Shown one piece after another: positions 42,729 through 45,622 of a stretch of 64,000 nt of DNA. This DNA is from Alphaproteobacteria bacterium SS10 (GTDB lineage Bacteria > Pseudomonadota > Alphaproteobacteria > TMED2): positions 191,893-255,892 of the forward strand of contig JAHCML010000006.1 of assembly GCA_019192455.1 (NCBI GenBank), written 5' to 3'. Position 1 is the first letter of the stretch. Every line of letters begins with the position of its first letter. A model generated the notes under the pieces. That model searched no databases, was not told where the DNA came from, and was given only the letters and a program-made list of their open reading frames with translations. Both the position numbers and the translations under genes were made by a program.

Positions 42729-43208
42729 CTAGCCCATGCGCTCTTTGATCATGCGGGTCAGCATGCGCCGAAGTGTGGCAGCGGAGCGATAAAGCTCACC
42801 ATCCAAGCGCTCACACTCCTGATAGACAAAGCTGCCATCTGGCTGTCGTTCAATCACCAGCGTTTCCTCACCGGTGGTGCCGATGACCAGTTGATTTGGC
42901 CCATCCACACCGCGACCTGGGGTTTGGTTTGCCGTGACCAGTGACGGCACCGTGTAGTTGCGATGGGGACGTGGCACATCTTCGGTGCCAAACAGCTGAA
43001 TACCGTTCCAGTTCAGGCCGTTAGCCAACCCCAGAAACATCGCAAAGTCTTCTGGGAGGGCGAATTTGCCAATACCATCCAGGGCCTGATTTGCCGCTGC
43101 AACCTCATCATCGGCCGCCGGTGGTTGGACCACGGCAAACTGGGCAATCCGCTCCAGCAATTGGGGGATGGTGGGATCATCATCGCGATGATGCGAGAGC
43201 TCAGACAT
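42729..43208 (-). CDS. SMI1/KNR4 (SUKH)-like protein, candidate immunity protein
   Basis: This 159-residue soluble protein has the SUKH-type core FALPEDFAMFLGLANGLNWNG followed by IQLFGTEDV (about residues 48-77), then beta strands LVIGTTGEETLVIERQ and SFVYQECERLDGELY. SUKH proteins commonly act as immunity factors that bind toxin nucleases in polymorphic-toxin loci, although the fold has other uses. It is 39 bases downstream of two HNH-nuclease-like genes on the same strand, which is the order expected for toxin then immunity. The assignment rests on pattern recognition and context. Confidence 0.6.
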   Translation of the reverse strand: MSELSHHRDDDPTIPQLLERIAQFAVVQPPAADDEVAAANQALDGIGKFALPEDFAMFLGLANGLNWNGIQLFGTEDVPRPHRNYTVPSLVTANQTPGRGVDGPNQLVIGTTGEETLVIERQPDGSFVYQECERLDGELYRSAATLRRMLTRMIKERMG

Positions 43209-43247
43209 GGCTTAGCCGCGTGGGTTTGGGTGCATCGATACGGCTAG

Positions 43248-44765
43248 TTAGCCGGGACTGACACCCGGATCAACCCGCCCTTGCCTGGCGTTTGATGGCG
43301 GTGTTGTTGGATCGATAACGGGATCGTCCTGACACTTCGGCGGGCCACTGCGCTGATACGGCATGGTCGGCTTAAACCAAGAGCCCTCAGGCATCAAAAC
43401 CCGCACGATGGCCGTCTCGTTCGGCTTCAACCGCTCGATCTGTGGGTCCAGATGCTGGTGGATTGCCAGGTGATAGGGCTGATTTGGGATCAGGATGAAG
43501 TTATCGAAATCATTGGCCCGGGCTGCCACGCGCGGGTCACCGGCACCGCCCAACGGATGCTTGTGGTGCACTGATAGCCCCTCGGGTGAGAAGCCCTGGC
43601 GCATCCCTTCAACTTCACAATCGGTGAGCTGATAAGCCTCTTTGATCTCATCGCCATGCTCTTCGACGAGCTTGCGAAGGAACTTACGCTTGGCCAACAA
43701 ACCCTCGTAGCGCAGCACATCAACCTTCTCGCCATCGACCTGTTTGAAAGTCTTAACCCGGCGGGTGTAGGCAATCTCAGCGATCGGCATGCCGTAGTTA
43801 TCGGATGCCGGACCGGAGGCGTAGATAATCCGGTTCTTAGGCTCTTGGCTCTTCTTCCGCCCTTTGCCACCTTTGCGGCGGCGCTCCATGGTTGGGTAAG
43901 CGCTCTCAAACTTGATCGCTTCGCGAATAGCGTCCAGGTCCCAGGAGCGGCCGTCATGATAATCATGATCTCCCGGCACCAAAATTTCTGGGAACTCATG
44001 ACCAGCTAACGCAGCCAACTCTGGCAGATGTTGGAAATCTGTCGCCTGGACGTACTTACCGCGCTGTTCTAACGCGCCCAGTTCCAGCAAGAGTTCTGCC
44101 CGTTCTTTGAGAGCGTCCTGAAGCGCGTCAGCGCGCAGCTTGGCTTGCCGAGCTTCTTCTTGAACCTCTTCGCGCTGAAGCTTTTCAGCCCGCCGCTGCT
44201 CCTCTTTAGCCTTTCGAGCAATCCGTTTTTCTTCCCGGATCTGGATACGACGGTCAGCCTCCGCCTGATGCTCAGCCTCAAGACGCAGGCGGGTTTCGGT
44301 AACCGCTTCAATACTGCGCTTAGGTATGCGGAAGATCGGACCTTTAAGCAGCGGTAGCTTAATGGTGCGCTGTCGGCTCGGCTTAACAGTGTCGATCTGT
44401 TGGTGGAGATACTGACCAACCTTGGCACCGAAAGGTTGCTTCGGGATCAGCACCATATTGCTGAACTCGTTCGTGCCCTTCTTGTCAGTTAGCGGAATAA
44501 CCCGACGGATCGCAAAACCGACCGGCGCATCGCCCTCGGCCATGGCGGCGATTTCGTCATCGGTAATGCCATTGCGCTTAAGCTGACCAGGTCTCGTCTC
44601 TGCCAAATGGGCGAGGAATTCCGCATCTGCCTGGCGCGCCTCGCGCCGCACTCTGTTCAGCTCCTTACGGCCACGATGCTGATAAGGATAGACGCTGTGG
44701 TTTAGGCCAAAGGGTGGATCTTCCTCTGGCATCTTGAAGGCTTGGTTCTTGCTGTTCTGGCTCAT
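43248..44765 (-). CDS. Two-copy HNH-nuclease-like protein: degenerate N-terminal copy, coiled coil, intact C-terminal copy
   Basis: This 505-residue protein has an N-terminal region (1-145) closely resembling the 188-residue neighbour, starting DPPFGLN and ending KLPLLKGPIF. In it the nuclease residues are gone: Arg87-Arg88 replace the HH pair, and Gly113 and Gly117 replace the two later His. A charged coiled coil follows (about 148-235, rich in Glu, Arg, Ala). After a basic linker (about 290-310, RRRKGGKGRKK), the C-terminal copy (about 365-475) retains SVHHKHPLGG (His400, His401), FDNFILIPNQPYH (Asn422, His432) and His436. No signal peptide or secretion domain is visible. Its start overlaps the upstream stop (ATGA) and a SUKH gene follows. 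Confidence 0.75.
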   Translation of the reverse strand: MSQNSKNQAFKMPEEDPPFGLNHSVYPYQHRGRKELNRVRREARQADAEFLAHLAETRPGQLKRNGITDDEIAAMAEGDAPVGFAIRRVIPLTDKKGTNEFSNMVLIPKQPFGAKVGQYLHQQIDTVKPSRQRTIKLPLLKGPIFRIPKRSIEAVTETRLRLEAEHQAEADRRIQIREEKRIARKAKEEQRRAEKLQREEVQEEARQAKLRADALQDALKERAELLLELGALEQRGKYVQATDFQHLPELAALAGHEFPEILVPGDHDYHDGRSWDLDAIREAIKFESAYPTMERRRKGGKGRKKSQEPKNRIIYASGPASDNYGMPIAEIAYTRRVKTFKQVDGEKVDVLRYEGLLAKRKFLRKLVEEHGDEIKEAYQLTDCEVEGMRQGFSPEGLSVHHKHPLGGAGDPRVAARANDFDNFILIPNQPYHLAIHQHLDPQIERLKPNETAIVRVLMPEGSWFKPTMPYQRSGPPKCQDDPVIDPTTPPSNARQGRVDPGVSPG

Positions 44766-45328
44766 GGCGCAAGCCCCCCAAGATCAGTCCGGGGTGCCGT
44801 TTTCGGCGCTGCCACACGAGGTAGATCATCGCCGCGCCGGTCTTGCCAAGCATCGCGGCGGGCAGCGGCAAAGGCAGCCAAATCGTTGGCTGGTGGTACG
44901 AATACAGGGCCCTTAACCACAGGCAGCTTGACCGTACGACCGCGACTAACCTTTAGGCTGCCAAGCTGGGGCGCCAGGTAAGCGTGGATCGCGTCGTGAT
45001 AGGGGGTTTGTGGCAGCAGGACCAGGTTATCGCGGTCATTGGTGCCGCCGGTGGAGTCCAATGGCTTGATGTGATGAACGGCAAAGCCTTCAGGCACGAT
45101 GCCCTCACGCATGCCCGCGATCTCTTTCGCGGTGATGCCAAGTGCGGCCAGCTTCGGGCCTTCGCTCTCGGCAATATCGGTGATGAAGTCGCGGCGGATC
45201 TTGGTGAACTTGCCCTTAATCTCGTCATAGTCCCGCCGAGCCCGCTTCACATAGCGGTACTCAATCCAATCCAACCCAAGGGGCGGATCATTCTTCGGTG
45301 GAACAAAACGGCGGCGGCGGCGCGCCAT
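44762..45328 (-). CDS. HNH endonuclease-like protein
   Basis: This 188-residue basic protein begins with MARRRRRF and carries a colicin/pyocin-like HNH core: FAVHHIKPLDSTGGTNDRDN then LVLLPQTPYHDAIH. His85-His86, Asn101, His111 and His115 are the probable metal-binding and catalytic residues. A helical segment (ITAKEIAGMREGIVPE) precedes the motif, and a shared tail (RTVKLPVVKGPVF) follows. The same unit occurs twice in the next gene. It is first in the three-gene operon. No trafficking domain is present, so it may act inside the cell (defence or phage-related) or use an unlinked secretion route. Confidence 0.78.
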   Translation of the reverse strand: MARRRRRFVPPKNDPPLGLDWIEYRYVKRARRDYDEIKGKFTKIRRDFITDIAESEGPKLAALGITAKEIAGMREGIVPEGFAVHHIKPLDSTGGTNDRDNLVLLPQTPYHDAIHAYLAPQLGSLKVSRGRTVKLPVVKGPVFVPPANDLAAFAAARRDAWQDRRGDDLPRVAAPKTAPRTDLGGLAP

Positions 45329-45547
45329 AGGGCAACTCCCTCACGGAATTCGGGCATCAAAACTAAGTGCCAATCTTCAGCAGGTTGGTTCGAGGGAGAG
45401 AACCAATCGCGGGGGTAGCGCGGGCTGGATGCGTCCAAACGCTGCTAGTTCATAGCGGTACCTAAACTTACCCAACCTTGACGAAAGCGTCAGGAATATA
45501 CTGACAAATCAACAGCCTGATTACGCAAGTAATGACCCAAAACGAAA
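45329..45547. other. Upstream region of the HNH operon
   Basis: There is no gene I can support in this stretch. It should contain the promoter of the minus-strand HNH/HNH/SUKH operon; I could not place convincing -35 and -10 boxes. The trxA terminator lies at its far end, so the operon is insulated from trxA. Confidence 0.4.
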
Positions 45548-45573
45548 CAGGCGCCGCAATAAAGCGGCGCCTG
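45548..45573 (-). terminator. Terminator after trxA
   Basis: A perfect 10-base stem, CAGGCGCCGC (45548-45557) and GCGGCGCCTG (45564-45573), with a six-base loop; on the minus strand it is followed by TTTCGTTTT. It lies about 50 bases after the trxA stop. Confidence 0.8.
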
Positions 45574-45622
45574 TCATCGATATCTCGTTTCAATTCTGAC
45601 GCCCAGACGGGGCGTTGAAGCT

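What the first reader, a model, noticed from the sequence alone, without database searches (positions are those of the whole stretch)
42729..45328. Three-gene operon of tandem HNH nuclease-like proteins followed by a SUKH-type protein
Two genes on the minus strand encode three copies of one roughly 100-residue unit: the helix-GI-x-E-x-x-x-M-x-x-G lead, an HH...N...H-x3-H core, then a K-L/V-P tail. A SUKH-like protein follows. Nuclease next to SUKH is the established toxin-immunity layout of polymorphic toxins, yet none of the proteins has a signal peptide, secretion or trafficking domain. This leaves a self-contained, perhaps intracellular defence or selfish module. The first two genes overlap by four bases and the third starts 39 bases on, so they are one unit. 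I do not know a described system with this composition.
Basis: partly seen in the sequence, partly recalled or inferred. Interest (0 to 1): 0.8.

Follow-up and report, generated by a model that had tools for sequence, protein, structure and literature searches.

The report
Orphan HNH nuclease and SUKH cassette
Three neighbouring genes of an alphaproteobacterium encode DNA-cutting HNH toxin-type domains (two intact, one dead) and the kind of partner protein that normally neutralises them; such pairs are known, but here no delivery machine was found, and a related pair in other bacteria sits next to the gate protein of a type IV secretion machine.

Summary
Genes A (44762-45328), B (43248-44765) and C (42729-43208), all minus strand, form an operon. 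A carries one HNH domain, B carries two, and C is a SUKH protein. The first HNH copy of B has lost every catalytic histidine (HH to RR, H...H to G...G). C passes NCBI's YrhA-family SUKH cutoff, and its predicted fold matches YobK (2prv), the immunity protein of a Bacillus LXG nuclease toxin. The same HNH plus YrhA-SUKH gene pair is found with LXG/T7SS genes in Bacillus and Listeria, a T6SS cluster in Photobacterium and on IncHI2 plasmids (10 of 10 loci read). The composition is therefore a known toxin-immunity layout. Unusual here: no trafficking domain, no T6SS, T4SS or contractile-sheath gene found in the complete genome, and a dead copy fused to a live one, an architecture that recurs independently elsewhere. 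Outside the window I found a more novel relative: in uncultured Alphaproteobacteria a general-base-less HNH protein plus SUKH sits directly behind a VirD4-type T4SS coupling protein (26 distinct loci). Most likely the window holds a stand-alone SUKH-neutralised HNH nuclease cassette. Toxicity, binding and delivery are inferred, not shown.

The parts
44762..45328 (-). Gene A: 188-aa protein with one intact HNH nuclease domain (residues 26-145; HH, N, H-x3-H present)
   Evidence: ORF; Pfam HNH PF01844 22.6 bits, cut-off 21.4; family profile 2.7e-40; residues
43248..44765 (-). Gene B: 505-aa protein with a dead HNH domain (residues 28-146), a charged coiled linker, and an intact HNH domain (340-466)
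   Evidence: ORF; profile 1.5e-34 and 1.2e-34; catalytic residues
44328..44684 (-). B1: degenerate HNH copy (HH to RR, both later His to Gly), sister of A
   Evidence: tree (A+B1 95/80)
43368..43748 (-). B2: intact HNH copy with a short insertion, not sister of A
42729..43208 (-). Gene C: 159-aa SUKH protein, YrhA/YPO0640 subfamily; presumed immunity protein
   Evidence: NF038335 58.1 bits vs cut-off 55; AlphaFold2 model pLDDT 89.6; best PDB fold matches YobK 2prv, 2icg, Knr4, FBXO3
45546..45575 (-). Terminator-like hairpin behind trxA that separates the operon from the upstream gene
   Evidence: consensus match only

Best explanation
The operon is a stand-alone toxin-immunity cassette. A and the C-terminal domain of B are HNH (beta-beta-alpha-metal) nucleases that would damage nucleic acid, most likely DNA. 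C is their SUKH-type immunity protein and binds the HNH domains to block the active site. B1 arose by duplication of A, lost catalysis, and is kept as a non-cutting domain, most likely a docking or regulatory unit in an A/B/C complex. Shown by computation: the gene layout, the HNH and SUKH family membership and SUKH fold, the loss of catalytic residues in B1, and the conserved gene pairing in unrelated phyla. Inferred: toxicity, inhibition by C, the role of B1. Deployment is open. No T6SS, VirB4/VirD4 T4SS or contractile sheath was found in the genome, so the cassette is either exported by a route I did not recognise or acts inside its own cell.
For: Family and fold: profile matches Cas8f-HNH 1.8e-6, pyocin AP41 4.7e-4, colicin E7 2.5e-3; nearest fold YobK, immunity protein of the LXG nuclease YobL. 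Pairing: HNH gene directly followed by YrhA-SUKH in 10 of 10 phage/plasmid loci read, from Bacillus, Cytobacillus, Listeria, Photobacterium, Pantoea, Polaromonas and E. coli IncHI2, several with LXG, T7SS or T6SS genes around them. [quoted passage not shown] HNH/HNH/SUKH order also in L032; dead-plus-live HNH followed by SUKH also in L036 and L125.
Against: No secretion or trafficking domain and no matching secretion system found, so classical contact-dependent use is not supported. Most alphaproteobacterial homologues of the intact HNH genes have no SUKH beside them, and some sit at a fixed chromosomal place (next to prephenate dehydratase in three families), which is unlike mobile toxins. 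C is divergent (24-31% identity to its relatives). The HNH model of A had no significant PDB fold match. No binding or toxicity data exist.
Confidence: 0.6

Rival explanations
1. Exported effector cassette: A and B are secreted into competitors by an unrecognised route (for example a Sec-independent or vesicle route), and C protects kin.
For: The nearest annotated relatives are LXG/T7SS and T6SS-associated toxins. Stand-alone toxin-immunity cassettes are a described part of polymorphic toxin biology (PMC3482391).
Against: No T6SS VipB, phage-type sheath or VirB4 family, and only a weak 22.7-bit VirD4-type hit, in a genome estimated 100% complete. No full-length toxin with this domain anywhere in the genome to recombine with. 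A two-partner (TPS) search was inconclusive because its controls were silent.
Confidence: 0.3
2. Intracellular module: A and B act in their own cell under stress or phage attack, and C is an antitoxin released on a trigger (abortive defence or a selfish toxin-antitoxin unit).
For: No export features or secretion system found; a self-contained operon with one nuclease-SUKH partner set per genome.
Against: PADLOC finds no defence family at a meaningful score; the flanking genes are housekeeping genes and composition is native. No homologous SUKH pair known to me acts this way.
Confidence: 0.3
3. Domesticated HNH/SUKH pair: the genes descend from a toxin-immunity pair but now do a housekeeping or regulatory job, as suggested by the T4SS-coupling-protein-linked dead HNH plus SUKH pairs of other Alphaproteobacteria; B1 is a step on that path.
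For: A T4CP / dead HNH / SUKH triplet conserved in 26 distinct loci. The second His of HH is lost in 19 of 19 rows of that clade but HH is kept in 35 of 38 others. Other HNH copies lie at a fixed place beside prephenate dehydratase in several families.
Against: A and B2 keep all catalytic residues and fall outside the T4CP clade (99/92). The window genome has no such T4CP.
Confidence: 0.2

Closest known systems
Bacillus SP-beta-type LXG toxin (next to yokF, so apparently at the yokI position) with its YrhA-family SUKH partner (L021, L023)
   Same: Homologous C-terminal HNH domain (34% identity over 121 residues), SUKH gene close behind, same gene order
   Different: The Bacillus toxin carries an N-terminal LXG domain for T7SS export; the window proteins have no such part and hold three HNH copies in two genes, one of them dead
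YobL-YobK (LXG nuclease and SUKH immunity protein of B. subtilis)
   Same: YobK (2prv) is the best solved fold for C; HNH-type nuclease with SUKH antitoxin, tested in vivo (PMC8321402)
   Different: Sequence identity of C to YobK is only ~17%; the toxin has T7SS delivery
Tox-HNH / Imm-SUKH stand-alone cassettes of polymorphic toxin systems (PMC3482391)
   Same: Toxin gene then immunity gene, no trafficking domain
   Different: No full-length toxin or delivery system found in this genome; dead plus live HNH fusion
T4SS coupling protein / 'MWDWS' dead HNH / SUKH triplet of uncultured Alphaproteobacteria (L078-L093; not described in the papers found)
   Same: Same HNH family and same YrhA-SUKH subfamily, same HNH-then-SUKH order
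   Different: Directly behind a VirD4-type protein; HNH general-base His lost; window genome lacks this T4CP
Colicin E7 / pyocin AP41 DNases (Im-family immunity)
   Same: HNH nuclease domain, weak profile match over the domain
   Different: Immunity proteins are of the Im family, not SUKH; bacteriocin translocation domains (from general knowledge)

Membership tests
SUKH superfamily, YrhA/YPO0640 subfamily (gene C) | Score above the curated subfamily cut-off | tested here: met
   NF038335 58.1 bits vs 55
SUKH superfamily, YrhA/YPO0640 subfamily (gene C) | SUKH (Smi1/Knr4) fold | tested here: met
   Model pLDDT 89.6; the eight best PDB matches are SUKH proteins incl. YobK 1.8e-5, Knr4, FBXO3. 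Pfam SMI1_KNR4 18.2 bits is below its 25.4 cut-off
HNH nuclease | HNH profile match | tested here: met
   A over the Pfam cut-off; B only through the family profile built here; PDB profile matches to HNH proteins
HNH nuclease | Catalytic HH, N, H-x3-H residues | tested here: met
   Present in A and B2; absent in B1 (HH to RR, H to G, H to G)
HNH nuclease | Nuclease activity | not testable with these tools
   Needs expression and assay
Polymorphic toxin-immunity system | Toxin domain gene directly followed by an immunity gene | tested here: met
   Order A-B-C; pairing conserved in 10 of 10 phage/plasmid loci
Polymorphic toxin-immunity system | N-terminal trafficking or repeat domain on the toxin | tested here: not met
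   No other domain in Pfam/NCBIfam; the frame of A opens 4 codons upstream of its ATG
Polymorphic toxin-immunity system | A delivery system in the genome | tested here: inconclusive
   No VipB, VirB4 or sheath; VirD4 family only a 22.7-bit partial hit. TPS search uninformative because its controls were silent. T1SS, T2SS and other T5SS variants not tested
T4CP-linked dead HNH/SUKH clade | VirD4-type gene directly upstream | tested here: not met
   Upstream gene is thioredoxin; no match to that T4CP in the genome
T4CP-linked dead HNH/SUKH clade | Tree membership and loss of the second His | tested here: not met
   A, B1 and B2 lie outside the clade (99/92); A and B2 keep both His
Known anti-phage defence systems (PADLOC) | Match to a defence model | tested here: not met
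   Only scores of 10.9-14.8 bits to candidate PDC models

The most novel reading that the evidence does not exclude
HNH-toxin/SUKH-immunity pairs have been built into the substrate gate of an alphaproteobacterial type IV secretion system. A pseudo-nuclease and a SUKH protein, co-encoded with the VirD4-type coupling protein, recognise and load a family of intact HNH nuclease effectors (basic C-terminal tails, short N-terminal H-x-K-R motif) made by the same cells. The window operon, with its own dead HNH copy fused to a live one and a SUKH partner but no T4SS, would be an independent offshoot of the same principle: dead HNH domains used as SUKH docking sites.
Probability: 0.3. Interest if true: 0.75.

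Novelty: new variant of a known kind. Interest (0 to 1): 0.45.

Why it matters
The window genes show an HNH/SUKH toxin-immunity type set without any recognisable delivery part, with a dead nuclease copy retained beside live ones. The wider survey shows the same pair fixed behind a type IV coupling protein with its general base lost. A standard survey states that classical polymorphic toxins do not appear to use the T4SS (PMC3482391). If the dead HNH plus SUKH is a substrate receptor, it would explain how one T4SS selects its cargo, which is directly testable by pull-down.

Tried and rejected
A single-protein scan of genome contigs with A found no relatives, and the 20-row alignment was too divergent to scan with; a four-row alignment of the T4SS-linked copies worked. 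A viral-contig scan found none. C has no plasmid match by tblastn, although YrhA proteins sit next to all HNH plasmid hits opened; C is simply divergent. phmmer hits of C to encapsulin shells were rejected as chance: E 0.0064 at 19.7 bits, unrelated fold, and the model is SUKH. Antibody hits of A were rejected. Foldseek with the model of A gave nothing significant: a small beta-beta-alpha motif in a larger model, so uninformative. I considered that the operon is a T4SS effector set like its relatives: not supported for this genome. I considered recent horizontal acquisition: no compositional support. Paper searches for SUKH with coupling protein and HNH, for DotN with HNH, and for inactive HNH with immunity protein found nothing.

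Full report
**Check of the observation.** The three reading frames exist as described, all on the minus strand: A 44762-45328 (188 aa), B 43248-44765 (505 aa), C 42729-43208 (159 aa). A and B overlap by four bases and C starts 39 bases after B. Upstream lies thioredoxin, closed by a hairpin terminator match at 45575-45546, then an addA-like UvrD/PDDEXK gene. Downstream lie a histidine kinase and an M1 peptidase. GC (0.57-0.61) and GC3 (0.61-0.65) are those of the neighbours.

**The repeated unit.** An iterated profile finds one unit in A (26-145, 2.7e-40) and two in B (28-146, 1.5e-34; 340-466, 1.2e-34). In A and B2 the catalytic set HH, N, H-x3-H is complete. In B1 it is destroyed: RR for HH, G and G for the two later histidines. 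In the tree A and B1 are sisters (95/80) and B2 lies apart, so B1 is best read as a local duplicate of A that died.

**What the domains are.** A passes the Pfam HNH cut-off (22.6 vs 21.4 bits). A 20-row profile matches solved HNH proteins: Cas8f-HNH 1.8e-6, pyocin AP41 4.7e-4, colicin E7 2.5e-3. The model of A (mean pLDDT 80) shows strand-strand-helix at the motif but had no significant Foldseek match. C passes the NCBIfam YrhA/YPO0640 cut-off (58.1 vs 55) although it is below the Pfam SUKH-1 cut-off. Its model (pLDDT 89.6) significantly matches only SUKH folds: YobK 2prv 1.8e-5, Listeria 2icg, yeast Knr4, with FBXO3 next. YobK is the antitoxin of the Bacillus LXG toxin YobL (PMC6562991).

**Who else has the pair.** tblastn with A finds 7 phage and 459 plasmid records. 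In all ten distinct loci that I opened, the HNH gene is followed at once by a YrhA-family SUKH gene: SP-beta-type phage and a Bacillus plasmid (LXG toxin, counted once), Cytobacillus (two, LXG gene upstream), Listeria (T7SS gene upstream), Photobacterium (hcp and vgrG downstream), Pantoea (three), Polaromonas, and an E. coli IncHI2 plasmid. [quoted passage not shown] HNH toxins with SUKH immunity and stand-alone toxin-immunity cassettes are described (PMC3482391). The composition is therefore known.

**Alphaproteobacterial relatives.** In 385 genomes of the class, 28 hold the HNH family. Two groups appear. (i) A clean clade (99/92) of HNH proteins, most starting MWDWS or a close variant and having a linker rich in Pro, Gln or charged residues. 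Of its 19 rows in the tree, 17 lie directly behind a VirD4-type coupling protein (Pfam T4SS-DNA_transf 1.6e-56), and nearly all lie directly before a YrhA-SUKH gene (NF038335 64.1 bits); no row outside the clade is so placed. Counting all fetched loci, 26 distinct ones show the coupling-protein link. All 19 clade rows have lost the second His of HH, the presumed general base, while most keep the metal ligands; 35 of 38 other rows keep HH. Of 23 genomes with the close coupling protein, 22 have the HNH family, against 6 of the other 362 (shared ancestry inflates this contrast). (ii) Intact copies, up to eight HNH-family matches per genome, often with an N-terminal H-x-K-R-like motif and a basic C-terminus. 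Some sit beside prephenate dehydratase in three families. Only some are followed by SUKH: L032 (HNH-HNH-SUKH as in the window), L136, L046, L027, L036 and L125. In L036 and L125 one protein carries a first HNH with a damaged motif and a second with HH, then SUKH. The tree places these apart from B1 and B2, so the dead-plus-live design probably arose at least twice.

**The window genome.** It has only these three HNH copies and only this SUKH homologue. It has no VipB, no contractile sheath, no VirB4, only a weak 22.7-bit partial match to the VirD4 family, and no match to the clade's coupling protein. A two-partner (TPS) search was inconclusive because its controls were silent. Other export routes were not tested.

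**Mechanism.** Most likely A and B2 are nucleases that C neutralises by binding the HNH domain, as SUKH partners are thought to do for LXG nucleases; B1 is a non-cutting docking or regulatory copy. Shown: layout, families, fold, residue loss, pairing. Inferred: cutting, toxicity, inhibition. Whether the nucleases are exported or act inside the cell is open, and I rate the two about equal.

**Verdict.** The interpretation as nuclease plus SUKH partner is right. The claim of an undescribed composition is not. The window is a new variant of a known kind: a dead-plus-live HNH set with SUKH and no delivery system found. The most interesting lead lies outside it: the T4SS-linked dead HNH/SUKH pair, for which I found no paper and which would extend a survey statement that classical polymorphic toxins do not appear to use the T4SS.

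Noticed in passing
L078-L093, L028, L031, L034, L035, L038, L039, L041, L043, L045 (e.g. L080:5024-8930): Conserved triplet VirD4-type T4SS coupling protein / MWDWS dead-HNH protein / YrhA-SUKH in uncultured gut, rumen and other Alphaproteobacteria; the coupling protein often ends in an acidic tail.
   Followed up: partly
L080:2718-4892 and equivalents: Two unannotated membrane-anchored genes with HWxxIWNxW-like motifs sit directly upstream of that coupling protein in many loci; possible further coupling-complex subunits.
   Followed up: no
L027:15489-17403, L135:5731-7564, L128, L130, L134: Arrays of intact HNH genes with a short N-terminal [YF]xHxKR-like motif and basic C-termini (often ending GR) and mostly no SUKH beside them; several lie next to prephenate dehydratase in different families. 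Candidate T4SS effectors.
   Followed up: partly
L147:2808-4385 (IncHI2 plasmid of E. coli): The same HNH plus YrhA-SUKH pair lies beside a TraG-N conjugation gene on an IncHI2 plasmid; the plasmid hits are dominated by near-identical matches in enterobacteria, most predicted conjugative.
   Followed up: partly
L036:6507-7491, L125:4925-5925: A ROS/MUCR-type regulator gene lies directly behind the HNH-HNH/SUKH pair in two genomes of one genus.
   Followed up: partly
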